From NCBI RefSeq assembly GCF_008065135.1, contig NZ_CP042914.1:2170001-2234000 (forward strand): a DNA stretch of 64,000 bases. The letters are read 5' to 3'. This stretch comes from Roseimaritima ulvae (GTDB lineage: Bacteria > Planctomycetota > Planctomycetia > Pirellulales > Pirellulaceae). This document shows, in pieces, positions 3,105 through 56,484 of this stretch. Made by a program: the position numbers and the translations under genes. The stretch's first letter is position 1. The number at the start of each line of letters is the position of its first letter. The notes beneath the pieces were generated by a model, which saw only the letters and a list, made by a program, of their open reading frames with translations, was not told the DNA's origin and ran no database searches.

Positions 3105-3163
3105 CGTAGCCGAACCTGCCAGAGATTGGGTGAGCCGTCCAAAGGCTGGCGGCTTCGGCTACG
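3105..3163. repeat. GTAG/GCCA hairpin pair, degenerate
   Basis: Head-to-head pair of the interspersed GTAG element. The left arm starts CGTAGCCGAACCTGCCAGAG and the right arm ends GGCGGCTTCGGCTACG. Both stems carry mismatches, so this copy looks decayed. It lies in the shared upstream region (3094-3288) of the two divergent PSCyt genes; I see no convincing promoter there. Confidence 0.7.
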
Positions 3164-3288
3164 TATGAAGGCGGGATGGATTGGGGTGGGGGACAGAATT
3201 ATAGGCCTAGTCCCACCCCCGATGCAACTTTTTCATTTTTCTGTCGTAACGTGCGCCCCACTCCCATAAGGTTCGTTATAGTGGTGCC

Positions 3289-6225
3289 ATGGCCGCTCAC
3301 CCCCCTCCCCACCTCCTGGCAGTTCTCGCTGCCGTGCTGGCAACATTCACGTTCCTGGCACCGCCCAGCCTCGCCGCAGAGCCTGACGCTGCGACAGCGG
3401 AGGCGAATGAACTGTTCGAAAAACACGTTCGTCCAACTCTGTTGGAACATTGCATTCGTTGCCATGGCGATAAGAAACAGCAGGGCGGGCTGCGGTTGGA
3501 TTCGCGTGAAGGCTGGATGACGGGCGGGGATTCCGGTCCGGCCATCGTGCCCGGCCAGCCCGACGACAGCTTGTTCGTGCAAGCCATCCGCTACACCGAC
3601 AACAACTTGGAAATGCCGCCCAAGGGAGTGTTGCCACAAACGACCATCGCGGCGATCGAACAATGGGTGCGGTTGGGCGCTGCCGACCCGCGCACATTGG
3701 ACGCAAGTGGCGAACCGTCCGCGACGTCGTCGGGTCCGCCCACGGTCGAACAAGGGCGATCGTTCTGGGCTTTCCAGCCGGTTCAGACCTCGATGCCGCC
3801 AGCGGTGAACGACGGCGATTGGCCCGACACGGATATCGACCGTTTTGTGTTGGCCAAGCTGGAACAAAACGGCATGACGCCCGCTGGTGATGCCACGCGT
3901 CTGGATTTGGTTCGCCGTGTTTATTTTGATCTGATCGGCCTGCCTCCCACGCCGCAACAAATCGAACAATTCGTCAACGACCCCTCGCCCTCAGCCTATG
4001 CCGATCTGGTCGACCGCCTGTTGGACTCGCCGCAGTTCGGGGAGCACTGGGGACGACACTGGTTAAGCGTCGTGCGTTACGCACAGTCCAGTGGCGGTGG
4101 CCGCACGCTGTTGTTCCCGGAAGCCTGGCGGTATCGCGACTACGTCATCGATAGCTTTAATCAAGACGTTCCCTACGACCAATTTGTCCGCGAGCAGTTG
4201 GCCGGAGACCTGTTGGAGTACGACGACTGGCGCGACCGACGGCGGAAGTTAATCGCCACGGCGTTTCTGTTGCTGGGGCCGACCAACTACGAACTGCAGG
4301 ACAAAGACATTCTGGAGATGGACGTCGTCGATGAACAGCTCGACACGTTCGGCAAAAGCGTGCTGGGCATGACGATCGGCTGTGCGCGATGTCACGATCA
4401 CAAGTTTGATCCGATCCCCACCCAGGACTATTACGCTTTGGCGGGCATTTTCAAAAGCACCAAAGCCATGATCCACAGCAATGTGTCGCAGTGGAATACG
4501 GTTGAACTGCCGTTGGATCCAAAGCAAGCCGCAGAGCGGAAGGAACGCCAAGCCGAAATCGCGGAGGTCCGCGCGGAATTGGCCGTAGCTACCAAAGCGT
4601 GGGTGGACGCCGGCGGTATGCCCGATGAGTCGAAGGGCAAGCAAGTGCGGTCGATCGATCGCAAGTCCCTTCCGGGGGTCGTGGTGGACGATGACGAAGC
4701 GGAAACCATCGGTGAGTGGATGGAATCGACTTCGCAGCCCGGTTTTGTGGGACGACGTTACCTGCATGATTCGGCGGCCGAACCGGGCAAGAAACGCGTG
4801 ATTTATCGTCCGCAACTGCCGCGTTCGGGACGCTACCAGGTTCAGCTCAGCTACGCCGCCGGCCCCAACCGTTCCACTCGGGCCCAGGTTCAGATACGGC
4901 ACCGCGATGGTGAATCAACCGTGAAGGTCAATCAACGCAAAACACCGGAGCTGGACGGCAAGCTGTCTTTGCTGGGCACGTTTGCGTTTGACGTCGACGG
5001 CGAAAATCCTCCCCAAGTCACGATCTCGAATCAAGGCCCACAAGATGGTGTGGTGATCGCCGATGCGGTGGTGTTTATTTCGGTTACTACCAAAGACACC
5101 CAACCGGTGGCAGAACAGCCTGTCGACCCGCTGGCCGAGGCGGAAGGCAAAGCCGCGGAGGCCGCACTGGCAAAACTCAAGAAACGTGTCGACACGTTGA
5201 CGGGGGAATTGAAAGCCTTGGAGAAATCGTTGCCGACGGCGCCCAAGGTGATGGCAACGGCCGACGATCCGGATGCCGGCGACATTCCCATTGCGATTCG
5301 CGGAGTGGTTCACAACGCCGGACCGATGACCCCGCGAGGCACCCTGCAAGTCGCTTCGCATGAACCCTTTGCCTCGATCCCCGCAGGCCAGAGCGGCCGC
5401 CGCGAACTGGCCGACTGGACCTGTGATCCCCGCAACCCACTGACCTCCCGCGTGATCGTTAATCGCATCTGGCAATGGACCATCGGTCGCGGTTTGGTGT
5501 CCACAGTGGACAATTTTGGCTCCATGGGACAGACGCCCACGCATCCGGAGCTGCTGGACTATCTGGCGGCGTCGTTTGTCGAAAACCAATGGTCGATCAA
5601 GACGCTGATTCGTAAGATCCTGCTGTCGCGGACGTATCGGTTGCAGACGCTGTCCAGCGCACAGACCGACCCCACCGATCCCCACAATCAGTGGCTCTCC
5701 CATGCCCACCGCAAACGACTGCACGCCGAGCAAATTCGCGACGCGTTGTTGGCCATCAGTGGCAAATTGGATGCTACTCAAGCGGGCCCGAACCTGAGGG
5801 AAGGCACGCGTTCGGAGTACGGCTACAAATTCACCAGCACGCGGCGGAGCGTGTATGTGCCGGTGTTTCGCAATCGCTTGCCGGAACTGTTCGAAGTGTT
5901 TGATTTTCCCGATCCGAATATTCAAAGCGGATCGCGAAACGTCAGCACGATCGCTTCGCAGGCACTATTGTTGATGAATCATCCCTTGGTGATCGAACAA
6001 TCGCAAACGGCCGCCGAGCGGTTGCTGCAGCGAGACCTGGACGATGATCCCGCACGAATTCGCTTTGCTTATCGGCAGGTTCTGGGCCGGCCGCCGAACG
6101 AGGACGAGCTGGCCATCATGTTCGACTTCATCGACGGCCAGCAGGACAGTGGCCAGCGACAAGCGGCTTGGACGCTGATGTACCAGACGTTATTCCAAAG
6201 CATCGACTTTCGACATTTGAACTAG
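3289..6225 (+). CDS. Planctomycete cytochrome C / DUF1549 / golvesin-like / DUF1553 protein
   Basis: A 978-residue exported protein (signal peptide to about residue 29, ending SLAA). The PSCyt1 domain has CIRCHG at 55-60. DUF1549 follows with GEHWGRHWLSVVRYAQ and GCARCHDHKFDPI, and DUF1553 occupies the last 260 residues (RVIVNRIWQWTIGRGLV). Between them, residues about 480-600 form a separate beta domain (RPQLPRSGRYQVQLSYAAG, then VKVNQRK, then GVVIADAVVF). This matches the golvesin/xly carbohydrate-binding pattern, and a coiled segment follows it. The gene is 15 bp upstream of a DUF1501 gene, so the two are probably cotranscribed. An envelope role in polysaccharide handling is inferred from the added domain, not shown. 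Confidence 0.92.
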   Translation: MAAHPPPHLLAVLAAVLATFTFLAPPSLAAEPDAATAEANELFEKHVRPTLLEHCIRCHGDKKQQGGLRLDSREGWMTGGDSGPAIVPGQPDDSLFVQAIRYTDNNLEMPPKGVLPQTTIAAIEQWVRLGAADPRTLDASGEPSATSSGPPTVEQGRSFWAFQPVQTSMPPAVNDGDWPDTDIDRFVLAKLEQNGMTPAGDATRLDLVRRVYFDLIGLPPTPQQIEQFVNDPSPSAYADLVDRLLDSPQFGEHWGRHWLSVVRYAQSSGGGRTLLFPEAWRYRDYVIDSFNQDVPYDQFVREQLAGDLLEYDDWRDRRRKLIATAFLLLGPTNYELQDKDILEMDVVDEQLDTFGKSVLGMTIGCARCHDHKFDPIPTQDYYALAGIFKSTKAMIHSNVSQWNTVELPLDPKQAAERKERQAEIAEVRAELAVATKAWVDAGGMPDESKGKQVRSIDRKSLPGVVVDDDEAETIGEWMESTSQPGFVGRRYLHDSAAEPGKKRVIYRPQLPRSGRYQVQLSYAAGPNRSTRAQVQIRHRDGESTVKVNQRKTPELDGKLSLLGTFAFDVDGENPPQVTISNQGPQDGVVIADAVVFISVTTKDTQPVAEQPVDPLAEAEGKAAEAALAKLKKRVDTLTGELKALEKSLPTAPKVMATADDPDAGDIPIAIRGVVHNAGPMTPRGTLQVASHEPFASIPAGQSGRRELADWTCDPRNPLTSRVIVNRIWQWTIGRGLVSTVDNFGSMGQTPTHPELLDYLAASFVENQWSIKTLIRKILLSRTYRLQTLSSAQTDPTDPHNQWLSHAHRKRLHAEQIRDALLAISGKLDATQAGPNLREGTRSEYGYKFTSTRRSVYVPVFRNRLPELFEVFDFPDPNIQSGSRNVSTIASQALLLMNHPLVIEQSQTAAERLLQRDLDDDPARIRFAYRQVLGRPPNEDELAIMFDFIDGQQDSGQRQAAWTLMYQTLFQSIDFRHLN

Positions 6226-6240
6226 ACGCGAGGTATTTGC

Positions 6241-7683: not shown

Positions 7684-7702
7684 CTGGTCAACGCCGCTCT
7701 TT

Positions 7703-7921
7703 CGTAGCTACGCTCGCCAGAGCGTGGAATTCCGTAGCTACGCTCGCCAGAGCGTGGGGACCGCGCATCACCCCTGCCCTTCGCCTTCTGCCGCCAAGCC
7801 CACCGTCTGGCGACGGTAGCTACGATCCACCTTCTGGCGAAGGTAGCTACGTCTGTTCCAATCTCTGGCGAGATCGGCTACGGGTGGTCCCCCGGTCCAA
7901 TCTCTCTCCAGATCGGATACG
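7703..7921. repeat. Cluster of five to six GTAG/GCCA hairpins with different stems
   Basis: Fills the gap between the DUF1501 gene and the ABC operon. Two direct copies of GTAGCTACGCTCGCCAGAGC (stem ACGCTC/GAGCGT) are followed by three inverted copies. Their stems are ACCGTC/GACGGT, ACCTTC/GAAGGT and ATCTC/GAGAT, each around the complementary loop TGGC and ending in GGTAGCTAC or GGCTAC. A decayed sixth copy ends GGATACG at 7921. Stem sequences differ but each pairs with itself. Confidence 0.85.
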
Positions 7922-7945
7922 CTAGGACTCTCCAGGGAGAGTTCT

Positions 7946-8683: not shown

Positions 8684-11200
8684 ATGCTTTATTGGAAGAT
8701 GGGCTGGCGACAAATTCGTCGTTACCCCGGTCGCTCGGTGGCCACCTTGCTGGGAATCATGATCGGGGTCGCGGCGGTGATTGCGGTCACCCTGGCGACC
8801 CGCTCGACCGATCAAGCCTTTGATTCGATGTTCGAGTCGATATCGGGACGCGCCGCGCTGGAGGTTTCGGCGGCGGGCGGCAGTTCCTTTGACGAATCGC
8901 TGGTCGAAAAAGTCGCCGAGGTGCCGGGCGTGCGGACGGCCGCGCCGCTGATTCAGCGACCAACGATGCTGTACTTTGGCGACCAGCGAGCCAAGCTGAT
9001 CACGTTGGGCATCGACCCGGTGCTCGATCAAGACATCCACCCCCGTGAGATCACTGCTGGCCAACCGCTGACCGAGGCCAAAGGCATCCTGTTGGAAAAT
9101 TCGCTGGCCATTTCGTTGGGAGTTGAACCGGACGACGCGGTGCGACTGTTGACGCGGCACGGCATGATTAAAGCACGTGTGATCGGGCTGTACCGTTCGC
9201 AGCAGACCGTCGCCACCACAGGTGGGGCCACGCTGCTGATGAATATCCCCGCCGCGCAGTACGCTTCCAAAATGCGCGGCCGTGTGAACGCCATCCAGAT
9301 TGTGCTGGATCCCGAAGCCGACATTCAACAGGTACAAGCCGAAATCGCCAAGCTGTTGCCGACGGGATTGCGAGTTCAACCGCCCGCATCGCGGAGCTCG
9401 TTCGCCTTAGAAACCGCTTACTCGACCCAGCAGGGCATGCAGACGTCGCGAGCCTTTTCGTTGTTGGTGGCTGTGCTGATCATCGCCAATACGTTCTTGA
9501 TCAACGTCACGCAGCGTCGGCGACAGATTGGTGTGCTGCGAGCCGTGGGCGCGACGCGCCGGCAAGTTGCCAGGATGTTGTACAGCGAAGCGTTATTGCT
9601 GGGGTGTGTGGGCGCATTGTTGGGCTGGATGCTGGGCAACGTGGGCGCGGACTATCTCTCACGGGCGATGGGACGGTTGTTTGAAACTTCGATGCCGCCG
9701 ACCGAGTGGTCGTTGTGGTCGTTGCTGCCCGCGGGCCTACTGGGCATTGGGCTGTCGTTGTTGGGCGTGTGGTGGCCGGTCCGCCGGGCCAGCGGATTGC
9801 CGCCGATCGAAGCGATGCGAGAAACGACGCCGGCGGATTTCGAAAACAGTTCTCGCTGGCCGATCTATGTCGGCGCCGTCCTGGTGGTGGGCTGTAGCGG
9901 AGTGCTGGCCGCGAGTTTGCAAGGCAAACTGCCGCCGGTCTATTCGGCCTGGAGCGGAGCGCTTCTGCTGGCCGGCTTGGTGTTGCTGATGCCGTTGGTG
10001 GTCTGGCCGTTCTGCCGCGTGGTGGCTTGGCCGCTCCGCTGGGTGCTGCCGGTGGAGACCAAACTGGCACACCAACAACTGTTGCGGCACCGCACCCGCA
10101 GCACGCTGACCATGGGGGTGCTATTTATCGGCATCAGTACCGGCGTGGGCATGGCCAGTTCGGTGATCGACAATGTGAACGACATCAAGGGTTGGTATCG
10201 CAAAGCCTTTGTGGCGGACTTCTTCGTGCGAGCGATGGCTCCCGACATGGCGACGGGGCTGGCTTCGGATCTGCCGGATGAAGTGGACGAGGAAATTCGC
10301 GAAATTCCCTTCATCCGTTCCATCGGCACCGCGCGGTTCGTTTCGGCTCAAGCCAACGACCAAAGTGTGATCGTGGTGGCCAGCGAACGCGCCGAGGATG
10401 CCGAGTCGCTGTTTGAATTAACCAGTGGTGATCCGCAAGGGCTGCCGCAACGGATGGCCGAAGGGCAGGTCGTGATCGGCAGTGTGTTGGCCGCTCGCAG
10501 TGGCAACTTGCAAGCCGGTGATTCGATTTCGATGGAAACCGAGCAGGGGCCCAAAACGCTGCAGATCGCCGCGGTCGCCAATGACTATATGGCCGGGGGT
10601 CGAACGGTGTACATGAGCCGCAAGGTCGCCGAGCAGTTGCTGGGGGTCAGCGGGATCGACGCCTACATGGTTCATGCGGAGGCCGGGCACCTGGACGACG
10701 TTCGCCAATCGTTGCAGTCGTTGACCCAAAAGCACGGCCTGTTGCTGCAATCGTTTTCGGACATTCAGCAACAGATCGACCGCATGATGGCGGGCGTGGT
10801 AGCCGGGCTGTGGGCCTTGGTGGTGTTGGGGTTTGCGGTGGCCGCGATGGGGGTGGCCAACACCTTGACGATGAACGTTTTGGAACAAACGCATGAAATC
10901 GGCTTGCTGCGGATCGTCGGCACCACGCAGTGGCAAGTTCGCAACACGGTGATCGTGCAAGCGGTGATGATGGGCATCATCGCTTTTCTACCGGGTTTGG
11001 CGGCGGGCGTGTTAATTGCCTATTTGACCCATATCACGGCCGCGCCGGTTTTGGGGCACCCGGTTCCCTTTGTCTGGCATCCCCTGCTGCTGGTGGGCAG
11101 CCTGCTAGCGGGCATGCTGGTGATCGCCGTGGCGGCTTGGTTTCCAGCTCAGCGTGCGGCTCAGTTGAAATTGCTCGATGCGGTCCGGCACAACACGTAG
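8684..11200 (+). CDS. ABC transporter permease with two FtsX domains
   Basis: An 838-residue membrane protein with an N-terminal TM helix (RSVATLLGIMIGVAAVIAVT), a periplasmic MacB_PCD-like domain, and three TM helices around 250-370 (SLLVAVLIIANTFLINVTQRRR, then GVLRAVGATRRQV). The whole arrangement is then repeated (LGFAVAAMGVANTLTMNV, then GLLRIVGTTQWQV). The double-length layout resembles the YbbP/LolC-like fused permeases working with the ATPase encoded just upstream. Its TAG stop (11198-11200) is formed by the GTAG of an interspersed repeat, so the C-terminus (AVRHNT) may have been set by that insertion. Confidence 0.9.
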   Translation: MLYWKMGWRQIRRYPGRSVATLLGIMIGVAAVIAVTLATRSTDQAFDSMFESISGRAALEVSAAGGSSFDESLVEKVAEVPGVRTAAPLIQRPTMLYFGDQRAKLITLGIDPVLDQDIHPREITAGQPLTEAKGILLENSLAISLGVEPDDAVRLLTRHGMIKARVIGLYRSQQTVATTGGATLLMNIPAAQYASKMRGRVNAIQIVLDPEADIQQVQAEIAKLLPTGLRVQPPASRSSFALETAYSTQQGMQTSRAFSLLVAVLIIANTFLINVTQRRRQIGVLRAVGATRRQVARMLYSEALLLGCVGALLGWMLGNVGADYLSRAMGRLFETSMPPTEWSLWSLLPAGLLGIGLSLLGVWWPVRRASGLPPIEAMRETTPADFENSSRWPIYVGAVLVVGCSGVLAASLQGKLPPVYSAWSGALLLAGLVLLMPLVVWPFCRVVAWPLRWVLPVETKLAHQQLLRHRTRSTLTMGVLFIGISTGVGMASSVIDNVNDIKGWYRKAFVADFFVRAMAPDMATGLASDLPDEVDEEIREIPFIRSIGTARFVSAQANDQSVIVVASERAEDAESLFELTSGDPQGLPQRMAEGQVVIGSVLAARSGNLQAGDSISMETEQGPKTLQIAAVANDYMAGGRTVYMSRKVAEQLLGVSGIDAYMVHAEAGHLDDVRQSLQSLTQKHGLLLQSFSDIQQQIDRMMAGVVAGLWALVVLGFAVAAMGVANTLTMNVLEQTHEIGLLRIVGTTQWQVRNTVIVQAVMMGIIAFLPGLAAGVLIAYLTHITAAPVLGHPVPFVWHPLLLVGSLLAGMLVIAVAAWFPAQRAAQLKLLDAVRHNT

Positions 11201-11311
11201 CCGAACTCGCCAGAGTTTGGAGCATTTTTGAGGGACACAACACGTAGCCGAACTCGCCAGAGTTTGGAAAATTTTGACGTGCGGCGTCCAACGTCTTGCG
11301 ACTTCGGCTAC
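11197..11311. repeat. Three GTAG/GCCA hairpins (two direct, one inverted)
   Basis: Two direct copies with stem AACTC/GAGTT and loop GCCA (beginning at 11197 and 11245) share identical flanks, including CACAACAC before the GTAG. The inverted copy ends GCGACTTCGGCTAC. The first copy supplies the stop codon of the ABC permease. The rest of the gap to 11439 shows nothing I can name. Confidence 0.88.
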
Positions 11312-12834: not shown

Positions 12835-12984
12835 GAAGAAAGAGGCCCCAAGGTCCAATGCTGCAGTAATACACTCCACGTCCCGAGGGAGGGTGTGGTA
12901 CTATTATGCCAGGCAGCTTCACAGGCGTAAGCCAATACGCTAGCCGTCGTGCTGACTCGTCGCCTCACCAAAGGACGCATCCAC

Positions 12985-14214
12985 GTGACTCAACCCACCG
13001 GCCCGGAAGCAACCGCGAACCTGGAACTGAACGAAGCCGAGCTACCGGCGGGCTACCGTTTTGCCGGGGTGGCCTGTGGGATCAAAGCCAGTGGCCGCGC
13101 GGACCTGTCGTTGCTCGTTAGCGACCAGCCCGTGGTGGCTGCCGGTGTGTTCACCACCAACCAAGTCGTCGCGGCGCCGGTGCTGCTGTGCAAGGCTCGG
13201 ACCCCATCGGCAACCGTTCGGGCGGTGGTCGTCAACAGCGGCAACGCCAACGCCTGTACCGGCAAGCAGGGGGAAGCCGATGCCCAGCAGATGACTCAGT
13301 GGGTCGCCGAAAAATTGGGCATCGCCGACGACGCCGTGTTGGTGATGAGCACCGGCGTGATCGGACACACGTTACCGATGACAAAAATCGAACAGGGCAT
13401 CGCGGCGGCACACCAGCAACTGGCGGCGTCCCCGGACGCGTTCCATCTGGCTGCCGACGCGATTTTGACCACCGACAAGTCACGCAAGGTCGCTTCGCGA
13501 ACCGTCAAAATCGGCAAGCAGTCTTACCACATCGCGGGGATGGCCAAAGGCGCCGGCATGATCTCGCCCAATATGGCCACCATGTTGGCGACCGTGATCA
13601 CCGACGCTCCGCTATCGCCGGAGGACGCGCAGAGTTTGCTGGCCACGTCGGCGGATCTGAGCTTCAATCGCGTCAGTGTCGACGGCCACACGAGTACCAA
13701 TGACACGCTGTTGCTGTTGGCCCATGCTTCGCCAAAACCGTTGGCCGAAGACGATCTGCAAGTCTTTCAAAACGCCTTGACGGAAATGTGCATCGAATTG
13801 GCCAAGCAGTTGCCGGCCGATGGCGAAGGCGCCAAGCATGTGCTGCAGCTGACCGTTTCCGGAGCCGCCAGCGACGAGGATGCCGCGGTGATCGCGCGGA
13901 CGGTGGCCGCCAGCCCACTAGTCAAAACCGCTCTGACCGGCGGCGACCCCAATTGGGGACGAATCGTCTCGGCCGCCGGGTATGCCGGACCGCCCATTTC
14001 CGTGCCCCAAACCTGTTTGACCATCCTCAACACGCCCGTCTTTACCGATGGCCAACCGGTCGCCTTTGACGCCGCGAAGTTGAGCGAAGCGATGAAAGCG
14101 GAACCCTTTGTGTCGGTCCGGCTGGTGGTCGGCAGCGGTCCGGGGCAAGCCAAATTCTGGGCCAGCGACCTGACCACCGACTACGTCGAATTCAATTCGC
14201 TATACACCACGTAG
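12985..14214 (+). CDS. argJ: ArgJ: glutamate N-acetyltransferase / amino-acid acetyltransferase
   Basis: Ornithine acetyltransferase family enzyme of the cyclic arginine pathway. It transfers acetyl from N-acetylornithine to glutamate, and in bifunctional forms also uses acetyl-CoA. The self-cleavage site is visible as SPNMATMLATV, with the nucleophilic Thr near residue 199, and the family motif GGDPNWGRI lies near the C-terminus. I chose the GTG at 12985 because AAGGA lies about 10 bp upstream and the product starts like other ArgJ proteins. A GTG at 12949 would add 12 residues. The stop TAG is supplied by a GTAG repeat element. No other arg gene is nearby. Confidence 0.94.
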   Translation: MTQPTGPEATANLELNEAELPAGYRFAGVACGIKASGRADLSLLVSDQPVVAAGVFTTNQVVAAPVLLCKARTPSATVRAVVVNSGNANACTGKQGEADAQQMTQWVAEKLGIADDAVLVMSTGVIGHTLPMTKIEQGIAAAHQQLAASPDAFHLAADAILTTDKSRKVASRTVKIGKQSYHIAGMAKGAGMISPNMATMLATVITDAPLSPEDAQSLLATSADLSFNRVSVDGHTSTNDTLLLLAHASPKPLAEDDLQVFQNALTEMCIELAKQLPADGEGAKHVLQLTVSGAASDEDAAVIARTVAASPLVKTALTGGDPNWGRIVSAAGYAGPPISVPQTCLTILNTPVFTDGQPVAFDAAKLSEAMKAEPFVSVRLVVGSGPGQAKFWASDLTTDYVEFNSLYTT

Positions 14215-14348
14215 CTACGCTCGCCAGAGCGTGGGAAACGTAGCCTGGGCTTCCAGCCTGGGGAAGCAGCTTCAGTCCCCACCGTCTGGCGACGGTAGCT
14301 ACGGGGGCGCGGAGGTGCGCGGGTCCAAAGTCTGGCGACTTCGGCTAC
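14211..14348. repeat. Mixed GTAG hairpin cluster between convergent genes
   Basis: Contains GTAGCTACGCTCGCCAGAGC (stem ACGCTC/GAGCGT). A GTAGCCTGGGCTTCCAGCCT element of the second stem family follows. Then come an inverted ACCGTC/GACGGT copy and an inverted AAGTC/GACTT copy ending in CTAC at 14348. The two outer GTAG/CTAC ends provide the TAG stop codons of both flanking genes, argJ on plus and the kinase on minus. Confidence 0.85.
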
Positions 14349-16576
14349 AACTCTTCGTCGGGCATGGGGACGGGCGAGGGACGTTCGGGCGACAGCACGG
14401 TGCCCAGTTCGTTCATCGTTTCGCGGATCGCTTGATACGCCGTAAAGGCCGCTGCTAGACCGAATGCCGTGGCGACCACCGCGAACAGGGTGATCCACGG
14501 CTTGTCATGTTGGTCACTGGTCAACACCAAGACGGCGGCTAATAAAGGGATGCCGGCCGCGACCACCAGGAATCGCGCGCAGCGGCGATCCATGTATCTC
14601 ACCCGGCCCTCGAAATTCGGGTCCTTCATCGTCGGCTGCATTTGCTGTGGGTAATAAACGATCACCCCGATCGCGGTCAGCCCGAAGAAGGGATACACCC
14701 AGGCCACCAAGCCACAGATCACCAACGAGATAAAGAAGTGTCCGCAATCGTCGGGTTGGAATTCCGGGAAAGCCGCCTTTAACGCCAGCGGATACAACAG
14801 CCCGGCCGCCGCCCAAAAGCCGGCGCCGATCGTGGCCGCTTGAAAACCGTAATTCCAGGTCGAACGCAGCAACGACTCATCGACGTGCTGACCGGATCGA
14901 GCTTGTTGCAGACCGCGCACGACCGGCCGCAAGAACCAATACAGCAAGACCACGGCGGCGGGAAACGCAAAGGCATTCACCCCCATCGCCAACCGTTCGA
15001 AATACGTTTGCATCATCGGATACTCTCGGATGATCACGATTTCGTTGTAAAAATAGTTAAAAATCCCCGCCGCGATATTGGGTACCAAAATCACCGTGGT
15101 GGCAACCAGCCAAGGCGGCAGACGCAAAATCATGCCGGGAAGACTGAAGCGTGGCGGATCAAATATTTTCGCGACTGCGGGAAACAAGGCCAGACGCAAC
15201 CGACCGGCTAGCTCGCCGCCGTCGACCGGACGTTTGGCGGGATCCAGCTGCAACGTCTGCAGCAGCACTCGATGCAGGACTCGCGACGAAGCGTCTTCTC
15301 CGACTTCGCAGTCCGCCGGCGTGAGTTCGCGGAGTTCGCGCTGCGAGCTGATCGCTTCGGACCAAGACGAGGGCGTTTGCTCGCTGCTCCAGGGACGCCG
15401 CGATTGCCACATTTCCCACAGCAGTACGCCCAACGAATAGATATCGCTGCGGCCGTCCAGGTCGGCCGCTTCGGTGGGGTCGGTGGCGTCGGCCGCACGC
15501 AGTTGTTCCGGCGACATATAAGCCAAGGAGCCGCCAAAAAACGCCGCCGCGCCGGCACGTCCCGACAGTCCGGTCGCGCTGACGTTAAAGTCCGCCAGTT
15601 TGGGAATACCTTCGGCCGACATCAGCACGTTGGCGGGCTTTACGTCACGGTGCAAGACTTTGCGACGATCGGCATAGTCCAGAGCTCGGGCCAGTTGAAT
15701 TCCCACCCAAGCCACCGTGCTGGGCCAGCTGGCGGTGGTCAACCATTTGCGGATCGACGAGACTTCGGGCGAGGGCTGCGCGGCGCGGAGCAGATTTTCG
15801 TCCACCGAGGTCGTGATCAGCGATCCGTCGCGATGTTCCGGCAACCGCTTGGCCGACCATTTCAGCACATCGGCCAGCGTGCCGCCAGAGACGTACTGCA
15901 TGTACAACAGATGAGCTTGCGGATCACAGACGCGGCGTTGATCGTACACCCGCACGATATTGGGGTGCTGCAGCTGAGCCAGGGCGCGAGGTTCGTCGCC
16001 GCTACGCTGCGAAACTTTCAGCGCCACCAACCGTTGCATGGATTCTTGGTGAGCCAGATAGACTTGGGCAAAGGCCCCGCTGCCCAGTTGGCGGATGATG
16101 GTAAAGTCATCCAGCTGCGCTCCAGCGGGTAGTTTCTCCGGCGCAGCGCCTTGATTCAGCGGAGCGATGGTTTCGTTCTGCAGGGGCAAACGCAACAGGG
16201 CACTGGACAGCTGCGGAAACCTTTCGCTGTATTCCTCACGCCGTGGGCTTTCGCCGAGTTCACGGCGCAGCTGCAGCTCTTCCAGGACCAGATCCAACGG
16301 TACCGATTCCTGGCATAACAGGTCCGGCAAAGCTTCCATATAAGATTCGATCAGGGGCACCGAGCCGTTGGCAGCCGCTTCGGACATGTCCAATTTGATC
16401 AGCTCGACCAGGACCAGACGTTTTTTGGCCAGCTCCCCTTCGGGCAAATAATTCCGCAGCTCAGTCCGATCTTCCAGCGGCGCGGCGGAGGCGAAGGCTT
16501 CCAGCCACATTTCCAGATCCAGGGTGTCGGTGCGGGTTTGCGTGGCCGCGGAAAAGGATCGATCCGGATCATTCAT
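14345..16576 (-). CDS. Membrane-anchored Hanks-type Ser/Thr protein kinase
   Basis: About 743 residues from the ATG at 16576; a GTG at 16633 would add 19. The N-terminal ~130 residues match the leader common in planctomycete kinases (ESYMEALPDLL, REEYSERFPQL). The kinase domain has GSGAFAQV (about 165), VALK (K187), HRDVKPANV (about 309), DFN in place of DFG (about 329) and YMSPEQ. Several TM helices follow (LVATTVILVPNIAAGIF, FAFPAAVVLLYWFL and more), so the kinase faces the cytoplasm from a polytopic membrane domain. It is divergent from the sigma factor at 16892, suggesting a kinase-sigma signalling pair. Its TAG stop lies in a repeat element. Confidence 0.9.
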   Translation of the reverse strand: MNDPDRSFSAATQTRTDTLDLEMWLEAFASAAPLEDRTELRNYLPEGELAKKRLVLVELIKLDMSEAAANGSVPLIESYMEALPDLLCQESVPLDLVLEELQLRRELGESPRREEYSERFPQLSSALLRLPLQNETIAPLNQGAAPEKLPAGAQLDDFTIIRQLGSGAFAQVYLAHQESMQRLVALKVSQRSGDEPRALAQLQHPNIVRVYDQRRVCDPQAHLLYMQYVSGGTLADVLKWSAKRLPEHRDGSLITTSVDENLLRAAQPSPEVSSIRKWLTTASWPSTVAWVGIQLARALDYADRRKVLHRDVKPANVLMSAEGIPKLADFNVSATGLSGRAGAAAFFGGSLAYMSPEQLRAADATDPTEAADLDGRSDIYSLGVLLWEMWQSRRPWSSEQTPSSWSEAISSQRELRELTPADCEVGEDASSRVLHRVLLQTLQLDPAKRPVDGGELAGRLRLALFPAVAKIFDPPRFSLPGMILRLPPWLVATTVILVPNIAAGIFNYFYNEIVIIREYPMMQTYFERLAMGVNAFAFPAAVVLLYWFLRPVVRGLQQARSGQHVDESLLRSTWNYGFQAATIGAGFWAAAGLLYPLALKAAFPEFQPDDCGHFFISLVICGLVAWVYPFFGLTAIGVIVYYPQQMQPTMKDPNFEGRVRYMDRRCARFLVVAAGIPLLAAVLVLTSDQHDKPWITLFAVVATAFGLAAAFTAYQAIRETMNELGTVLSPERPSPVPMPDEEL

Positions 16577-16767
16577 GACGGTCAGCTGCGTGAAAGTCGC
16601 AAGATCGTTGGAAATGCGTAAAAAACGATGCACCGCCGGTCAGTCTAGCAAATTTGCCGGCGATGCAGCTTTCCATTTTCTAATTTCATGCCTCGCGGAT
16701 TCAGTGGAGAATCCAACCGACCCCGCAGCCGACCCGCAAACGCCCCGTAAACAACTGCAAATAACCC

Positions 16768-16835
16768 GTAGCCGAACTCGCCAGAGTTTGGACGGTTTCG
16801 ATTAGAGCGGTCCAAAGTCTGGCGACTTGGGCTAC
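16768..16835. repeat. GTAG/GCCA head-to-head hairpin pair
   Basis: The left copy has stem AACTC/GAGTT and loop GCCA. The right inverted copy has AAGTC/GACTT with loop TGGC and ends GGGCTAC. It lies between the divergent kinase and sigma-factor genes. The remaining 16577-16767 shows no recognisable site. Confidence 0.88.
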
Positions 16836-18064: not shown

Positions 18065-18249
18065 GTAGCCTAGGCTTCCAGCCTGGGGGCATGCTTTCGG
18101 CAGGCGCTGCGCGCTTACGAGCAACGTAGGCCGGAACAAGCCGAGCGCAGTTCCGGCATGGGCAATCAAACGGCAACCCCCTGCCGGAACGGCGCACGGC
18201 TTGTTCCGGCCTACTGTCTGCGGTCTCCCAGGCTGGAAGCCTAGGCTAC
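18065..18249. repeat. Nested double palindrome with GTAG/CTAC ends
   Basis: The outer arms are GTAGCCTAGGCTTCCAGCCT at 18065 and its reverse complement ending CTAC at 18249. Inside them, GTAGGCCGGAACAAGCCG at 18126 pairs with CGGCTTGTTCCGGCCTAC ending at 18214. Both arm pairs are perfect or near perfect. The outer right end overlaps the thioesterase stop codon. Confidence 0.88.
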
Positions 18250-21052: not shown

Positions 21053-21129
21053 GTAGCATGGGCCCCTGGCCCGTGTGACTGGTTGGGATGTCGATTAATC
21101 GATCTCCACGGGCCAGGGGCCCATGCTAC
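21053..21129. repeat. GTAGCATGGGCCCCTGGCCC inverted repeat
   Basis: Perfect arms of about 24 bp (GTAGCATGGGCCCCTGGCCC plus GTG, and the complement ending CTAC) surround a 29-bp spacer. It is a third hairpin type with the same GTAG...CTAC ends, positioned between the ion transporter start and the deoxyhypusine-synthase-like gene end, both on minus. Confidence 0.88.
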
Positions 21130-24306: not shown

Positions 24307-24330
24307 GTAGCGACGCTCGCCAGAGCGTGG
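24307..24330. repeat. Single GTAG/GCCA hairpin
   Basis: One solitary copy, GTAGCGACGCTCGCCAGAGC followed by GTGG, with stem ACGCTC/GAGCGT. It lies between the EF-G-like gene start and the PQQ-propeller gene end. Confidence 0.8.
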
Positions 24331-27003: not shown

Positions 27004-27064
27004 TCCAAACTCTGGCGAGTTCGGCTACGAGAGTGAGTTCGGCTACGAGAGCGAGTTCCGCTAC
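27004..27064. repeat. GTAG/GCCA element with extra truncated copies
   Basis: On minus, a full copy (stem AACTC/GAGTT) occupies 27004-27028. Two truncated tails, GAGTTCGGCTAC and GAGTTCCGCTAC, follow at 11-12 bp intervals. The last CTAC (27061-27064) provides the TAG stop of the exonuclease gene. Confidence 0.82.
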
Positions 27065-30306: not shown

Positions 30307-30390
30307 CCCCCATTGAAAATGGGGTAGCCGATCTCGCCAGAGATCGGATCGCAGCGGCAACAAGGTCCAAAGTCTGGCGACTTCGGCTAC
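30307..30390. repeat. Hairpin plus GTAG/GCCA pair after pgi
   Basis: CCCCATT-GAA-AATGGGG (30307-30323) is a perfect 7-bp hairpin with a GAA loop. It is followed immediately by a GTAG copy with stem GATCTC/GAGATC and an inverted copy AAGTC/GACTT ending CTAC at 30390. It sits between the convergent pgi and rho genes and may serve as a bidirectional 3'-end structure. Confidence 0.82.
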
Positions 30391-35697: not shown

Positions 35698-36486
35698 GTG
35701 ATGTCGCCAGCCCCCATGCACTGTGTTGTCACCGGTGGCTCCAGCGGCATCGGCCGCGCCACGGCCATCCGCTGCGCTCAGGCCGGCGCCCGCACGGTGC
35801 TGATTCAATATCAAAAGAACCGCGACGGTGCCGAACAAACCGCGGAGCGCATCGAGGCCGCCGGCGCCCAACCAACTCTTGTCGCTGCCGACCTCAGCCA
35901 GGCCGACGATCGCCACCGGCTGGTCGCGGCCGCCTGGCAACCGTCCGATCGCGTCGATGCCTGGTTTCATATCGCCGGGGCCGACGTGCTGACCGGGACT
36001 GCCCAGCAGTGGTCATTCGACGACAAACTGACGCGGCTGTGGGAAGTCGATGTGCACGGCACGATCAGTCTGGCTCGCGCGGTGGCCGAGCGGATGCTGA
36101 CGCAGCCCGCCGGGCCGGCAACGCCGGCGATGCTGTTCACCGGCTGGGACCAAGCGACCGAAGGCATGGAAGGCGACGCGGGACAAATGTTTGGCCCCAT
36201 CAAAGCCGCCGTGATGGCCTATAGCCGCTCGCTGGCCCAGACCCTGGCTCCGCGAGTTCGTGTCAACTGCGTCGCGCCGGGCTGGATCCAAACCGCCTGG
36301 GGTGATACCGCTAACGACAGCTGGCAACAACGCGCCCGCGCGCAAGCTTTGATGAATCGCTGGGGCACAGCGGATGACGTGGCCGCCATGGCCGTGCACC
36401 TGTGCAGCGGCGATTCCGAATTCATCACCGCCCAAACGATCAACGTCAACGGCGGCTGGAACCGCAGGCCCCACAACGCCCCGTAG
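35698..36486 (+). CDS. SDR-family protein with altered catalytic residues
   Basis: A 262-residue Rossmann-fold protein of the short-chain dehydrogenase family. The cofactor loop TGGSSGIGRAT (12-22) is intact, and RVRVNCVAPGWIQTAW and NVNGGW at the C-terminus fit. However, the catalytic YxxxK reads F165-GPI-K169, and the usual active-site Ser block is LFTGWDQ. Normal reductase chemistry is therefore doubtful; binding or a variant reaction is possible. Starts at 35698 (GTG), 35701 (ATG) or 35716 (ATG) are all plausible. The TAG stop is part of a GTAG repeat. Confidence 0.85.
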   Translation: MMSPAPMHCVVTGGSSGIGRATAIRCAQAGARTVLIQYQKNRDGAEQTAERIEAAGAQPTLVAADLSQADDRHRLVAAAWQPSDRVDAWFHIAGADVLTGTAQQWSFDDKLTRLWEVDVHGTISLARAVAERMLTQPAGPATPAMLFTGWDQATEGMEGDAGQMFGPIKAAVMAYSRSLAQTLAPRVRVNCVAPGWIQTAWGDTANDSWQQRARAQALMNRWGTADDVAAMAVHLCSGDSEFITAQTINVNGGWNRRPHNAP

Positions 36487-36582
36487 CCGAAGTCGCCAGA
36501 CTTTGGACTGGGCGCATCCCGTAGCCGAAGTCGCCAGACTTTGGACTGGGCGTTGGATCCAAAGTCTGGCGACTTCGGCTAC
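36483..36582. repeat. Three GTAG/GCCA hairpins (two direct, one inverted)
   Basis: Two tandem copies with stem AAGTC/GACTT, each followed by ACTGGGCG, then one inverted copy ending CTAC at 36582. The first GTAG provides the SDR stop codon. Confidence 0.9.
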
Positions 36583-42198: not shown

Positions 42199-42347
42199 GT
42201 AGCCGAACTCGCCAGAGTTTGGATGGGTTGCCGCCACACCGTAGCCGAACTCGCCAGAGTTTGGACGTGTTGTCGCCGCGCCGTAGCCGTACTCGCCAGA
42301 GTTTGGATGGGTTGTCGCATCGTCCAAAGTCTGGCGACTTCGGCTAC
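42199..42347. repeat. Four GTAG/GCCA hairpins at the pstS 5' end
   Basis: Three direct copies (stems AACTC/GAGTT twice, then ACTC/GAGT in GTAGCCGTACTCGCCAGAGT) spaced about 48-49 bp apart, then one inverted copy AAGTC/GACTT ending CTAC at 42347. On minus all are read without a stop in the pstS frame (repeated peptide QTLASSAT). This is the only cluster located between two genes of an apparent operon. Confidence 0.9.
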
Positions 42348-44769: not shown

Positions 44770-44835
44770 GTAGCCGAACGCGCCAGAGTTTGGACGGTTT
44801 CTCGTACGCTTCCAAAGTCTGGCGACTTCGGCTAC
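44770..44835. repeat. GTAG/GCCA head-to-head hairpin pair
   Basis: The left copy (AACGC/GAGTT, stem mismatched) and the right inverted copy (AAGTC/GACTT, ending CTAC) lie in the 248-bp gap between arsM and the MerA-like gene. The gap argues that arsM may have its own promoter. Confidence 0.85.
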
Positions 44836-52541: not shown

Positions 52542-53878
52542 CGTGTGGCCCTCACTTGATCAATCCGTTCGGTCCTCAACACGCCCTCACGGAAGTACAT
52601 TCGCGGAACTTTCAAACCGCAGCGATGCAGCCGCTCCAAACACAGCGGGATCAGTCCCTTCGATTCGAACTGGCCTTGAATGTTTCCTTTTGTATCCACG
52701 CCGGTCTGCCGGTAGACGAACAAGTCGTGCATGTTGATGTTCTCGCCATGCAGGCCCGTGACCTCGGATATCTGCACGATCTTGCGAGCCCCGTTGGGCA
52801 GTCTGGCCACCTGCACCACCAAGTGGATGGAAGCGGCGATCTGCCGATGAATGAAGCTCATTGGCAACTCCGGCGCCGCCATGTTGACCAGCATTTCTAA
52901 TCGGGTAAGTGCTTCGCGAGAATCGTTGGCATGAATCGTCGACATGCCTCCATCGTGGCCGGTGTTCATAGCCTGCAGCATGTCAAAGGCTTCTCGACCG
53001 CGGCACTCGCCAACAATGATGCGATCGGGACGCATTCGCAGGGCGTTGCGGATCAAGTCTCGCGATGTCACTTCGCCTTTTCCATCGAGGTTGGCGACCC
53101 GCGTTTCCATGCGCGCCACGTGAGGCTGCTGCAACTGTAACTCGGCAGCATCTTCGATGGTTGCGATTCTATCTTTACTGGAGATAAACCCCGACAACAG
53201 ATTTAATAGGGTGGTTTTACCGCTGCCCGTGCCACCCGAAACTAAAATATTCAAGCGAGCACGCACACAGGCGGCCAAGAAATCGAGCATGGCGGGAGCA
53301 GCCGATTTTGCCGCGATCAAACGCCTGGTATCGATCCTACGGTTGTTGAACCGGCGAATCGAAACCAAAGCGCCGTCCAAAGCCAGCGGATGGATCACCG
53401 CGTTCAGTCGACTACCATCCAGCAGCCGGGCATCCACCATCGGACTGGACTCATCGATGCGTCGCCCCACCCGCCCGACTATCCGCCGCACGATGTCGAC
53501 CAAATGATCGTTGTCGCGAAACTTGATCGACGTTAGTTCCAGCATACCGCGACGTTCCACGTACACACATTCCGGCCCGTTGACCAGAATGTCCGATACC
53601 GTGGGGTCTTGCATCAAAGGTTCCAGGGGGCCCAATCCCAAAGTCTCATCCAACAACTCGTCCACTAGTCGCTGGCGATCGACCAAGGACAACAGATCCG
53701 AGTTGCGTCGCGTCAGCTCTTCGGCCCCGCGTCGCAACTCTTCACGCAATCGTTCCTGGTTCACCGAACGGGATACCGCCAGATTGATATCACTGATCAG
53801 CTTCTCGTGAATCTCGGCTTTTAATTGTTGAAAGCGATACTCGCGGGTGGCGGGATCGACGATCGTGGGTGTGGGCAT
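52538..53878 (-). CDS. tadA: Tad pilus assembly ATPase TadA/CpaF
   Basis: A 446-residue secretion ATPase. N-terminal helical domain with [20 protein letters not shown] and [20 protein letters not shown]; Walker A GGTGSGKT (215-222); Asp box [12 protein letters not shown]; Walker B region [19 protein letters not shown]; His box [14 protein letters not shown]. It powers Flp pilus extension (and probably retraction) at the cytoplasmic face. The ATG at 53878 is chosen (MPTPTIVD); the frame is open to 53974, but that part is unconserved. Confidence 0.95.
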
Positions 53879-53928
53879 GAGTCGGTTTCTCAGTGAGGGG
53901 AATATGGGGACAAACAGTGCAATGGCAT

Positions 53929-55158
53929 TCAGGCAGTGACGGTTTGGGGGCAATCCGTCTTGCGGCGTCCCCACATCGTTTCACCTAGAAATTTGAGTGA
54001 CTGGTCTAGCAGACGCGAGCTTTCCCTCCGCTCGCACGATACCAGGCCGTTTAATACCGGCAGCTTCTCCGCCCAATGCTGTATCGCGGTGGCAAAGGCG
54101 GATTGCGGATATTCGTGGACAAGTGGATTACCAATGTTTAAAGACGCGGTAATGGCTACTGGGTCATCAGGAATGCAGACCAACTCGGTGATCTCCAGCA
54201 GTTTGCAAACTGCTTTCACCGGCAGTTCGCTGATATGGCCGCTGCGCATGGCAACCACGTGCAGATCGATGTGAGACGAGTGATTGGCTTGTAAAAATCG
54301 CAGCGTCTCTTTGGCACGTGCCAAAGAGACAATATCGAGACGGGTCGTCACCAGCACGGCATCACTCAACGCCAATGCTCGTAACTGCCCCGCATGAATC
54401 GCATCATCGGTATTGACCACAGTGCAGGGCCGCGACGCCTTCAGATAGCGGAGAATCGGCCGGCACAACGAAGCATGTACGTTGTTCAGACGACTGAACA
54501 TTTTGGGACTCGCCAACAGACGGATCCCCGTGGCGTGAGCGGCTAGCGTTTGCTCGATCATCGATTCGTCAACCCCTTGCTTCTGGGTCAACAAGGCATA
54601 CAGCGTATGCGTGGGGGCGAGCTTTAACATCGTCGCCAGATCTCCGCCGCGCAGATGCAAGTCGATCAAGCCGCAATCCCCGGTGCAGCGGGCGATGGTT
54701 GCCGCCAAATTCACCGACAACAGATTGGCGTCCCCAAGATCTCCGCTGGGCACCACCGTGATCATTTTTCCGCTGCGACTGGTGCCCGTCTGGTCGGCCC
54801 GCAGGCGGTGCATCAGTTTGGCCAACTGGTCGCGTAAATCCGATCGCCAGATCAACGCGTCGCTAGCCCCGGCACGAAAAATCTGCAGGGTTGTTTCGCT
54901 ATCGGCCAGCTGAGAGACCACGACGACCTGTAGCTGACTGACAGTCCGTAGGTGCTGCAAAACTTGCAGATGTTTCGGGCGGATCGAATGCACGGCAAGA
55001 AAACACACCCGGGGCGCATCGGATGCTTCCCACGTCCACTCCCCGGCAGACTGAAATGCTGTGATTCGCTCGCCCGGGCAATCGATTCCCAGCCCACGCA
55101 GCGATGCCTTCAGTCGCGTCGTCAGCGCATCGTCTTCTGTAATAATCCAAACTTGCAT
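53929..55158 (-). CDS. TadZ/CpaE-like protein with degenerate P-loop
   Basis: A 409-residue protein from the ATG at 55158. The N-terminal ~120 residues form a receiver-like fold ([20 protein letters not shown], then [20 protein letters not shown]). A MinD/ParA-like domain follows, in which the Walker A position reads [17 protein letters not shown], without the signature Lys. The following block [16 protein letters not shown] matches the CpaE LVDLDLxxGDL strand. TadZ/CpaE proteins place the pilus machine at the pole; loss of the lysine suggests no ATP hydrolysis. First gene of the tad operon. Confidence 0.88.
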
Positions 55159-55325
55159 CTCAAAGTTGCCTCTGTTCGCCGGCTTTCGGTTGTTACTTGG
55201 TCCTGCTCGGTGCCGTCCCTTTGCTCTTCGCTGCAAAGTCAGGGACATTCCCAAGCGCTTGCCAGCACAAACGAAACCTAGGTCCCACTGTCGAAGCGAG
55301 GGCCAACTGGGCAGCGTTTTTCCGT

Positions 55326-55341
55326 TAGAGAAAACCCCTAC
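55326..55341 (-). promoter_or_regulatory. Candidate operator GTAGGGGTTTTCTCTA facing tadZ
   Basis: On minus, GTAGGGGTTTTCTCTA lies 168 bp upstream of the tadZ-like start. It differs by one base from the copy at 55548-55563. Core TAGGG-GTTTT-CYCTA is an imperfect dyad. Binding by the neighbouring LuxR-type regulator is an inference. Confidence 0.4.
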
Positions 55342-55547
55342 AGAATCCCCCTAGTGAAAAGCGAAGCGTCGCTAAGTCGCATTAATGGAGGGTACGGACC
55401 CTTTGTGTCACGAGCCACTCACCAGTTCCTGCCCCCTCTTCCGGAGTGGCCCGTGCTGGCCATGGCGGACAGCATTTCGCCCGGCGGTAGGGAGACCGCC
55501 AATTCTTAAGCCATGCGGGGGGCTTATACAGACAAACATTCTGGTTC

Positions 55548-55563
55548 GTAGGGGTTTTCCCTA
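55548..55563 (+). promoter_or_regulatory. Candidate operator GTAGGGGTTTTCCCTA facing the regulator gene
   Basis: On plus, 194 bp upstream of the regulator start. TAGGG and CCCTA form a perfect dyad around GTTTT. Same relative orientation to its gene as the tadZ copy. Confidence 0.42.
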
Positions 55564-55756
55564 TGCCGACTGGGGTGGTGGCTGCCGATGGAATAGGTAG
55601 TGGGGCGCTGTTCGAGCGCAAGTCTCGTCCGCGGGTAACACAAAGTCTTCTGTCATCATCCATGGGGTTTTGGGGTGGCTTGAGGGAGGAGGCGTGGGAC
55701 CGTGGTCGAACTCGCCCCTGTGTTGGAAAGGACAACGTGAATTTGGGGCATCGATT

Positions 55757-56410
55757 GTGAAGCAACCTACTGTCTATCTGCTCGAAGACGACTGCGCCAG
55801 CCGTGCGTCGATCACGCAGTTTCTTCACGGCCAACGCCTGACGGTGTTTGCCTTTGCGGACCCTGGGACATTCCTTCAGAACTATGATGCCGAGGTCGCC
55901 AACTGTCTGTTGCTTCGGCTGAGGATTGCGGACACCAGCGGAAGTGCGGTGGCCCGACAAGTGGCGTCGCAAGGATACTGCCCGCCCTATATCGTGCTCA
56001 GCGAGCAGGCCGGCATTAGCGATGCGATCGAAGCGATGAAGAACGGGGCCATGGATTTTCTGGAAAAGCCAGTCAATCCTCAACAACTGTTGATGCGGAT
56101 TGAGCAAGCGCTCAATGAAGACGAACGCCGGCGCAGCAATCGCACGATCCGTTCCAGCATTCGCAGTCGGATCCAGTCTTTATCTTCCCGTGAACGTGAA
56201 GTTCTGAAGCTGGTGATGGAAGGCTGCCTGACCAAGCAAATCGCCAAGCAACTCAATATCTCCACCAAAACGGTGGAAGCCCACCGTGCTAACATCGTCC
56301 GCAAAATGCATGTGTGCTCGTTCCTGCAAGTTGTCCAGATGGTCGCCATCGAGCAAACGGTTCAGAATGACGCGCCCTTCCTAGCGGTCGCCGACTCATA
56401 TCTCCAGTGA
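55757..56410 (+). CDS. LuxR/FixJ-type regulator with receiver lacking the phospho-Asp
   Basis: A 217-residue two-domain protein starting at GTG 55757. The receiver (1-118) keeps the acidic pocket (LLEDD, residues 8-12), Ser82 and K104 (FLEKP). The phospho-acceptor position reads CLLLRLRIAD, with Arg54 where FixJ-type proteins have Asp. The LuxR helix-turn-helix is intact: LSSREREVLKLVMEGCLTKQ, IAKQLNISTKTVEAHRANIV. It is divergent from the tad operon and probably controls it. No histidine kinase is adjacent, consistent with phosphorylation-independent action. Confidence 0.9.
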   Translation: MKQPTVYLLEDDCASRASITQFLHGQRLTVFAFADPGTFLQNYDAEVANCLLLRLRIADTSGSAVARQVASQGYCPPYIVLSEQAGISDAIEAMKNGAMDFLEKPVNPQQLLMRIEQALNEDERRRSNRTIRSSIRSRIQSLSSREREVLKLVMEGCLTKQIAKQLNISTKTVEAHRANIVRKMHVCSFLQVVQMVAIEQTVQNDAPFLAVADSYLQ

Positions 56411-56423
56411 TTTGCGCCCCCGT

Positions 56424-56484
56424 CGCTACCGTCGCCAGACGGTGGGCCAATTGCGTCGTCGCTACCGTCGCCAGACGGTAGGAG
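56424..56484. repeat. Two direct GCCA hairpins, stem ACCGTC/GACGGT
   Basis: Two copies of GTCGCTACCGTCGCCAGACG about 36 bp apart between the convergent regulator and TolC-like genes. Here the ends read CTACC...GGTAG, so the hairpin is symmetric. Confidence 0.8.

What the first reader, a model, noticed from the sequence alone, without database searches (positions are those of the whole stretch)
3105..56484. Interspersed GTAG hairpin family with an invariant GCCA loop and covarying stems
About 14 intergenic loci (for example 7703-7921, 11197-11311, 16768-16835, 30324-30390, 36483-36582, 42199-42347, 56424-56484) carry short elements starting GTAG. Each has a stem-loop whose loop is GCCA. The stem sequence differs between copies but always pairs: AACTC/GAGTT, AAGTC/GACTT, ACGCTC/GAGCGT, ACCGTC/GACGGT, ACCTTC/GAAGGT, GATCTC/GAGATC. 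Compensatory change is strong evidence that the folded structure is selected or required for copying. Most elements occur as opposed pairs (GTAG...CTAC). Conserved GTAG before a hairpin and head-to-head pairing are the defining traits of REP/BIME elements mobilised by RAYT (HUH Y1) transposases. No RAYT lies in this window, and I know of no description of this loop/stem set.
Basis: partly seen in the sequence, partly recalled or inferred. Interest (0 to 1): 0.72.

Follow-up and report, generated by a model that had tools for sequence, protein, structure and literature searches.

The report
Planctomycete GTAG hairpin repeats and their transposase
The window carries copies of a very abundant family of tiny DNA hairpins that look like the well-known mobile REP repeats; in eight related genomes the same hairpins sit beside a distinct group of REP-type transposase genes, so this is a new, large member of a known kind of mobile repeat.

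Summary
A relaxed scan finds 30 copies at 12 places in the window (24 strict; 0 strict in the reversed sequence). The complete 8.2-Mb genome holds 1,138 strict copies, backwards control 0; 83 of 199 same-family genomes have a match. Stems covary: 51 distinct copies pair in 96.6% of cells, 79.8% after shuffling. In the stretches examined, neighbours face head to head or run direct, never tail to tail.

The REP/RAYT reading is supported. No Y1 gene found in this genome has a GCCA hairpin within 1 kb. But one RAYT clade (14 members found; DHxH and YIARNP motifs; the seven tested score below Pfam and NCBIfam cut-offs) has a strict GCCA copy within 91 bp of the open frame in 8 members, from 8 genomes; five others have other GTAG hairpins, one none. 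No clade member was detected in the window's genome, which has the most copies of those searched.

The tag often supplies a gene's TAG stop, as reported before (PMC3733652). Ortholog stops in the nearest relative, but not in two others, suggest that the GTAG was there first. Verdict: new member of a known kind.

The parts
3106..3162 (.). degenerate head-to-head pair (3106-3129 +, 3139-3162 -)
   Evidence: 6/8 and 7/8 pairs, core mismatched
7704..7757 (+). two direct copies, stem CTACGCTC/GAGCGTGG, loop GCCA
7800..7881 (-). three direct copies on the minus strand (stems CTACCGTC, CTACCTTC, CCGATCTC), facing the pair at 7704-7757
11197..11311 (.). two plus copies (11197, 11244) facing a degenerate minus copy (11288-11311); TAG at 11198-11200 is the stop of ORF 8684-11200 (permease-like)
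14211..14348 (.). array between convergent genes: plus copy 14211-14234, minus copies 14279-14302 and 14325-14348; the tags supply the stops of ORF 12949-14214 (ArgJ) and ORF 14345-16633 (-, kinase-like)
16768..16835 (.). heterotypic head-to-head dimer (CCGAACTC / CCCAAGTC arms, 20-bp spacer)
24307..24330 (+). single copy (7/8 pairs)
27005..27028 (-). single copy
30324..30390 (.). heterotypic head-to-head dimer (CCGATCTC / CCGAAGTC arms, 19-bp spacer)
36483..36582 (.). two plus copies facing one minus copy; the inner pair is the only head-to-head dimer with identical arms among 35 in the 864-kb sample; TAG at 36484-36486 is the stop of ORF 35698-36486 (SDR-like)
42199..42347 (.). three plus copies facing one minus copy
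44770..44835 (.). head-to-head pair, plus arm with one core mismatch
56422..56481 (+). two direct copies whose tag reads GTCG instead of GTAG

Best explanation
The elements are REP sequences of the GTAG superfamily: 24-nt units made of a GTAG tag, an 8-bp stem and a GCCA loop. The mobile unit is probably a head-to-head dimer (REPIN/BIME) copied in trans by an HUH-Y1 transposase of the RAYT kind. Shown: copy number, structure kept through compensatory change, head-to-head polarity, spacers alike inside some sub-families, and a RAYT clade with exactly these hairpins at its sides in eight other genomes. Inferred: that this RAYT moves them, that it acts on single-stranded DNA at the folded hairpin, and that insertion takes place 3' of a GTAG already in the host (often a TAG stop codon). 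In the window's own genome the population looks orphaned: many near-perfect copies, no detected clade member.
For: 1,138 strict copies, control 0. 83 of 199 family genomes. GTAG before 148 of 157 hairpins with the tag left free. Covariation. 134 of 148 sampled elements intergenic by crude gene calls. Neighbours under 100 bp apart: head-to-head 35, direct 31, tail-to-tail 0; tail-to-tail 0 in all six stretches. 196 heterotypic head-to-head dimers genome-wide with spacers of 4-34 bp, spacers alike inside sub-families (rows, four identical 17-mers, two of them as reverse complement, and others close to them, in the Dive96_bin2.57 MAG). RAYT clade of 14: strict GCCA copy within 91 bp of the open frame in 8. 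The seven clade proteins scanned match NCBIfam REP_Tyr_transpos at E 3.5e-8 to 5.8e-11; D85, H86, H88 and Y147...N151-P152 are invariant in the 14. Clade support 100/99 against four outgroup RAYTs.
Against: No GCCA element lies within 1 kb of any of the 146 Y1-like ORFs (redundant), which include every Y1 gene found in this genome; that scan missed the L128 gene, which belongs to the clade. No clade member was found in this genome: not among its Y1 matches and not in 1.264 Mb of it searched with the clade profile. G083 (291 copies) shows none among its four NF047646 matches or in 400 kb. Six of 14 clade members have no strict GCCA copy. Family scores of the seven scanned proteins are below the curated cut-offs: NCBIfam 33.5-42.5 of 80 bits; Pfam at best 20.8 of 23, three of seven without a match. 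No solved structure matches by sequence. Monophyly of the members with GCCA is unresolved. No movement was observed.
Confidence: 0.88

Rival explanations
1. The hairpins are RNA elements, such as transcription terminators or 3'-end stabilisers, selected at gene ends and not mobile DNA.
For: They lie at gene 3' ends and are enriched between convergent genes (54 of 131 elements against 72 of 319 gaps; copies cluster, so that p value is too small). G-T pairs are common.
Against: No T run follows the hairpin. No Rfam match in the window at gathering scores. Heterotypic dimers, shared spacers and RAYT genes beside the hairpins are not expected of terminators. Same-sense bias near gene ends follows from head-to-head pairing alone.
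Confidence: 0.06
2. The mobiliser is an IS200-like Y1 protein with the Y...Q..HH motif rather than the RAYT clade.
For: 13 of 32 such genes have at least two tagged 8-bp hairpins within 500 bp (12 with NTAG tags, one with GTCG), against 1 of 32 with control tags. One in this genome has a GCCA-loop hairpin, of another stem type, beside it (L028).
Against: None of the class-1 genes scanned has the TCGCCAGA element within 1 kb (nearest 1,008 bp); the class-1 search found no match in G155, G038 and G143, which carry 269, 53 and 53 copies; the RAYT clade has the element directly at its sides.
Confidence: 0.05
3. A co-opted host function (for example nucleoid or gyrase binding sites) keeps the copies, and the RAYT link is a relic.
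For: 128 of 148 sampled copies are exact members of six sub-types although no clade RAYT was detected in this genome.
Against: Copy number ranges from 0 to 1,138 within one family of bacteria, which argues against an essential role.
Confidence: 0.1

Closest known systems
GTAG superfamily of REPs (Di Nocera et al. 2013, PMC3733652; passages read)
   Same: GTAG tag, 6-9 bp stem in most families, short loop, intergenic, head-to-head dimers, homo- and heterodimers, TAG stop supplied by the tag, Planctomycetes named as hosts
   Different: I could not tie the GCCA-loop family to any of their 24 families: Figure 1 is not held, and the names Pirellula, Rhodopirellula, Blastopirellula, Planctomyces, Isosphaera, Singulisphaera and Gemmata and the string GCCA do not occur in the main text
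REPINs with RAYTs of Pseudomonas (Bertels and Rainey 2011, PMC3116915; passages read)
   Same: inverted doublet as the unit, spacer less conserved than the arms, RAYT near the matching REPINs
   Different: arms here usually differ from each other in this genome; no tail-to-tail pairs seen; RAYT not detected in the richest genome
Group 3 TnpA-REP, for example S. maltophilia REPtron (PMC8266576; passages read)
   Same: 8-bp perfect palindrome behind GTAG, short loop that matters for recognition, DHxH and Y...NP motifs (motif table in PMC6006769, passage)
   Different: 4-nt GCCA loop instead of 3 nt; protein clade is far below the NCBIfam cut-off
IS200/IS605 elements (recalled, and passages of PMC6006769 and PMC8266576)
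   Same: HUH-Y1 chemistry; tetranucleotide at the 5' foot; possible insertion 3' of a host tetranucleotide
   Different: no transposase inside the repeat; short non-autonomous dimers, mostly 52-81 bp in the rows

Membership tests
GTAG-type REP | unpaired GTAG at the 5' foot of a short stem-loop | tested here: met
   148 of 157 with the tag left free
GTAG-type REP | high copy number, mainly intergenic | tested here: met
   1,138 copies; 134 of 148 sampled intergenic by crude gene calls
GTAG-type REP | stem kept by compensatory change | tested here: met
   75 cells with change on both sides, shuffled 21.9, 0 of 500 as high
REPIN/BIME | inverted pairs as the replicating unit | tested here: inconclusive
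   the arrangement is met: head-to-head 35, tail-to-tail 0, but also 31 direct; spacers shared inside sub-families. That the dimer moves as a unit is inferred
REP/RAYT system (REPtron) | RAYT gene flanked by the matching hairpins | tested here: met
   8 of 14 clade members, all in other genomes; strict copies on both sides in six of the eight
REP/RAYT system (REPtron) | the RAYT present in the same genome as the window | tested here: not met
   none of the 13 PF01797 and 15 NF047646 matches belongs to the clade, and none in 1.264 Mb; the whole genome could not be searched with the clade profile
REP/RAYT system (REPtron) | cleavage of the single-stranded hairpin by the RAYT | not testable with these tools
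   needs biochemistry
IS200/IS605 element | orientation bias relative to replication | tested here: not met
   heterotypic dimers 55:45 in the first 4.37 Mb, 48:48 in the rest; origin near 0 and terminus near 4.1 Mb are inferred from GC skew of four stretches

The most novel reading that the evidence does not exclude
The GTAG tag is not carried by the element but is host target sequence: hairpins insert directly 3' of pre-existing GTAG, so native TAG stop codons are landing sites, as an IS200/IS605 target would be. That would change the current reading of GTAG as an element-borne guide. Support: the tag's TAG is the gene stop in 17 of 83 same-sense element/gene-end pairs within 60 bp in 1.264 Mb of this genome, with none at -5 to -60, and in 13 cases in 80 loci of other genomes. 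The ArgJ protein of the window ends at the last position of two ArgJ profiles. Against G083 orthologs the 15 proteins compared end within 6 residues, five of them exactly, and 8 of the 15 ortholog stops read GTAG without a GCCA hairpin (background 29 of 241). Against: 0 of 13 in G028 and 0 of 10 in G109, so all 38 orthologs together are not significant (p 0.08).
Probability: 0.3. Interest if true: 0.6.

Novelty: new member of a known kind. Interest (0 to 1): 0.43.

Why it matters
It gives Planctomycetota a very abundant REP family with a candidate transposase clade whose tested members fall below the Pfam and NCBIfam cut-offs, so annotation by those cut-offs would overlook it. A population of over a thousand copies, most of the sampled ones exact, with no detected RAYT is a natural test of whether REPINs need their RAYT to persist. 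The stop-codon coincidence, set against empty ortholog sites, makes the question of what GTAG does (guide or target) testable by comparative genomics.

Tried and rejected
Replication-orientation bias of the dimers: suggested by the sample, rejected genome-wide. RAYT types of this genome as cognates: the EHVH/YVLDNP type has a match in 40 of 199 family genomes, and G083, G082, G171 and G013 are not among the 40 (rejected by inspection, not by a formal test). The long YVDLNP type is in 24 of 27 copy-rich and 19 of 28 copy-less genomes (p 0.10) but has no match in G083, G078 and G143. IS200-like Y...Q..HH proteins were my favourite until. Genes lying between nearby arrays: the open frames printed for eight of the twelve stretches showed no transposase; L128, one of the four not printed, holds a clade member, recognised only. 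My interim conclusion that no Y1 gene has GCCA hairpins beside it was wrong; it came from fetching the best-scoring RAYTs and from seeds that missed the clade; 40 further loci overturned it. My note that spacers share no sequence was also wrong. Rfam at gathering scores: nothing. Solved structures: nothing. Literature search gave nothing useful. Structure prediction was not used because its stated rule names loci of other tools only.

Limits: gene calls are crude (open frames plus a hexamer score). The elements counted as inside genes (14; 17 rows) lie toward the 5' ends of my gene calls, which I take for over-extended starts. Of the NF047646 matches listed I looked at 30 plus 40 loci; the rest, many of them YVDLNP-type or fragments, were not examined. 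Only seven of 14 clade proteins were scanned against the family libraries.
Full report
Observation. The window holds 30 copies of a 24-nt unit, GTAG + 8-bp stem + GCCA loop, at 12 places; 24 are strict, the reversed sequence gives 0 strict. The complete genome (8,212,515 bases, window at 2,170,001-2,234,000) has 563 forward and 575 reverse strict copies and none for the pattern read backwards. In the same bacterial family 83 of 199 genomes, this one included, have at least one match, from 1 to 1,138, against 0 or 1 per genome in the backwards control; the lowest counts are therefore not above control. Of the 80 loci listed, 75 have planctomycete titles (five of these say Kuenenia), three are titled Nealsonbacteria (one bin) and two only bacterium (one bin); I did not check the bins.

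Structure. In 864 kb of this genome (1.0-1.4 Mb, 5.4-5.8 Mb and the window) 128 of 148 elements belong to six exact types. Pairs 6 to 10 of the stem vary and mostly stay paired. When the tag is left free, 148 of 157 hairpins are preceded by GTAG. Base -1 is C in 124 of 147 and the base after GG is a purine in 141 of 147. On 51 distinct copies from other genomes the covariation score and the percentage paired exceed every shuffle.

Arrangement. Neighbours under 100 bp apart are head to head in 35 cases, direct in 31, tail to tail in none; no tail-to-tail pair was seen in 1.264 Mb of this genome or 400 kb of G083. The two arms of a head-to-head dimer carry C:G at pair 10-19 in one and G:C in the other in 31 of 35; the other four are G/G (2), C/T and G/T. 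Genome-wide there are 196 such C/G dimers with spacers of 4-34 bp. The rule is not general: in 85 dimers from other genomes, 53 are heterotypic at this pair and 32 homotypic, 17 with identical arms. As single-stranded DNA three heterodimers fold at -17 to -22 and three homodimers at -31 to -36 kcal/mol. That heterodimers escape clearance of long palindromes is an idea already in PMC3733652. Spacers are alike inside some sub-families, which suggests copying as a unit.

Place. 134 of 148 elements are intergenic by my crude gene calls. Within 60 bp of gene ends, in 1.264 Mb of this genome, 83 element/gene-end pairs are same-sense and 21 opposite. In 17 the tag's TAG is the stop codon and none lies at -5 to -60. 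G083 shows 2 of 10 in 400 kb. In 80 loci of other genomes there are 13 at exactly this offset, two at other negative offsets, and never more than four at any other. [quoted passage not shown] What I add is the ortholog comparison for the 16 cases of the 864-kb sample. Against G083 (15 orthologs) the proteins end within 6 residues of each other, five exactly, among them ArgJ and its convergent kinase-like neighbour; ArgJ also ends at the last position of two ArgJ profiles. In G083 8 of 15 orthologs end in GTAG with no GCCA hairpin behind it, against 29 of 241 in G083 at large (p 1.3e-4). In G028 0 of 13 and in G109 0 of 10 do; pooled, p is 0.08.

The transposase. This genome has 13 PF01797 and 15 NF047646 matches, overlapping lists. 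Some have their own hairpin families beside them: 1844226 (GTGG-tagged, both sides), 7135355 (GTAGCCTGACTC, both sides), 3475529 (GTAGCCACGGGC, on one side). So the gene-hairpin link can be seen here. None has the GCCA family close by; the nearest copy is 1,078 bp away. The RAYT and IS200-like loci of relatives first fetched gave none within 1 kb either. Forty further RAYT loci of copy-bearing relatives changed the picture: seven carry GCCA elements at the gene, and an eighth (L128) was already in hand. A profile built from those seven and two sisters (L438, L446) finds 14 members at E under 1e-50 among all ORFs of the fetched loci. Strict GCCA copies lie within 91 bp of the open frame in eight (L440, L437, L441, L445, L435, L430, L128, L444), on both sides in six of these, with some copies overlapping the open frame as I delimited it; for L441 and L128 only one side shows a strict copy. 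Of the other six, two carry GTAGCGGAA... hairpins, three GTAGTGG...-G(C/T)TA hairpins, and one shows none. The clade has DHxH and YIARNP motifs and 49-70% identity to L440. Seven members scanned score 33.5-42.5 bits against an NCBIfam cut-off of 80; four of the seven reach at best 20.8 of 23 bits for Pfam Y1_Tnp and three have no match at E 0.01.

Own genome. No own match belongs to the clade; with the clade profile the best own ORF, in the Y1 loci and 1.264 Mb searched, scores E 2e-4 and is another RAYT type. G083 is in the same position.

What it is. A REP family with REPIN-like dimers and its own RAYT clade, filed as a new member of the GTAG REP/RAYT kind. Whether it is one of the 24 families of the 2013 survey I cannot tell, since that figure is not held. 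Papers: for PMC3733652, PMC6006769, PMC12306157, PMC8266576 and PMC3116915 I saw passages; other papers only in search listings. A search for Rhodopirellula with extragenic palindromic gave no paper.

Noticed in passing
window 18065-18249 (and 14240), 21053-21129: Two further GTAG hairpin families in opposed pairs: GTAGCCTAGGCT-TCC-AGCCTGGG and GTAGCATGGGCC-CCT-GGCCCGTG. The TCC type resembles the GTGG-tagged hairpins beside a RAYT in G083 (L039).
   Followed up: partly
L004/L028, L006, L063-L065, L073, L074, L077, L079, L081, L084, L100 and others: IS200-like Y1 genes with the Y...Q..HH motif often sit among tagged 8-bp hairpins (13 of 32 with at least two within 500 bp, 12 of them NTAG-tagged; control tags 1 of 32), although PMC6006769 describes the subclass with this motif as generally lacking typical terminal IS200 structures.
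   Followed up: partly
L023 4554-5360 and flanks (genome 232012): RAYT-like gene flanked by hairpins of another type (GTTCGC-GGA-GCGAAC) on both sides.
   Followed up: no
L018 4599-6127 (genome 1844226): RAYT inside an array of GTGG-tagged hairpins, mostly with TCCC or TCCT loops.
   Followed up: no
L282-L289 and rows: A 390-aa Y1 family with YVDLNP motif, multi-copy in many genomes of the family, up to 36 matches; behaves like an autonomous element.
   Followed up: partly
L028 5480-6000: 217-bp tandem repeat carrying paired GTAG hairpins just behind an IS200-like gene.
   Followed up: no
L211 (G083 C185:65710-66630): Between ArgJ and its convergent neighbour, where this genome has GCCA elements, G083 has GTAG stops on both sides followed by TTGTTAG and TTGATGG tandem repeats.
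   Followed up: no
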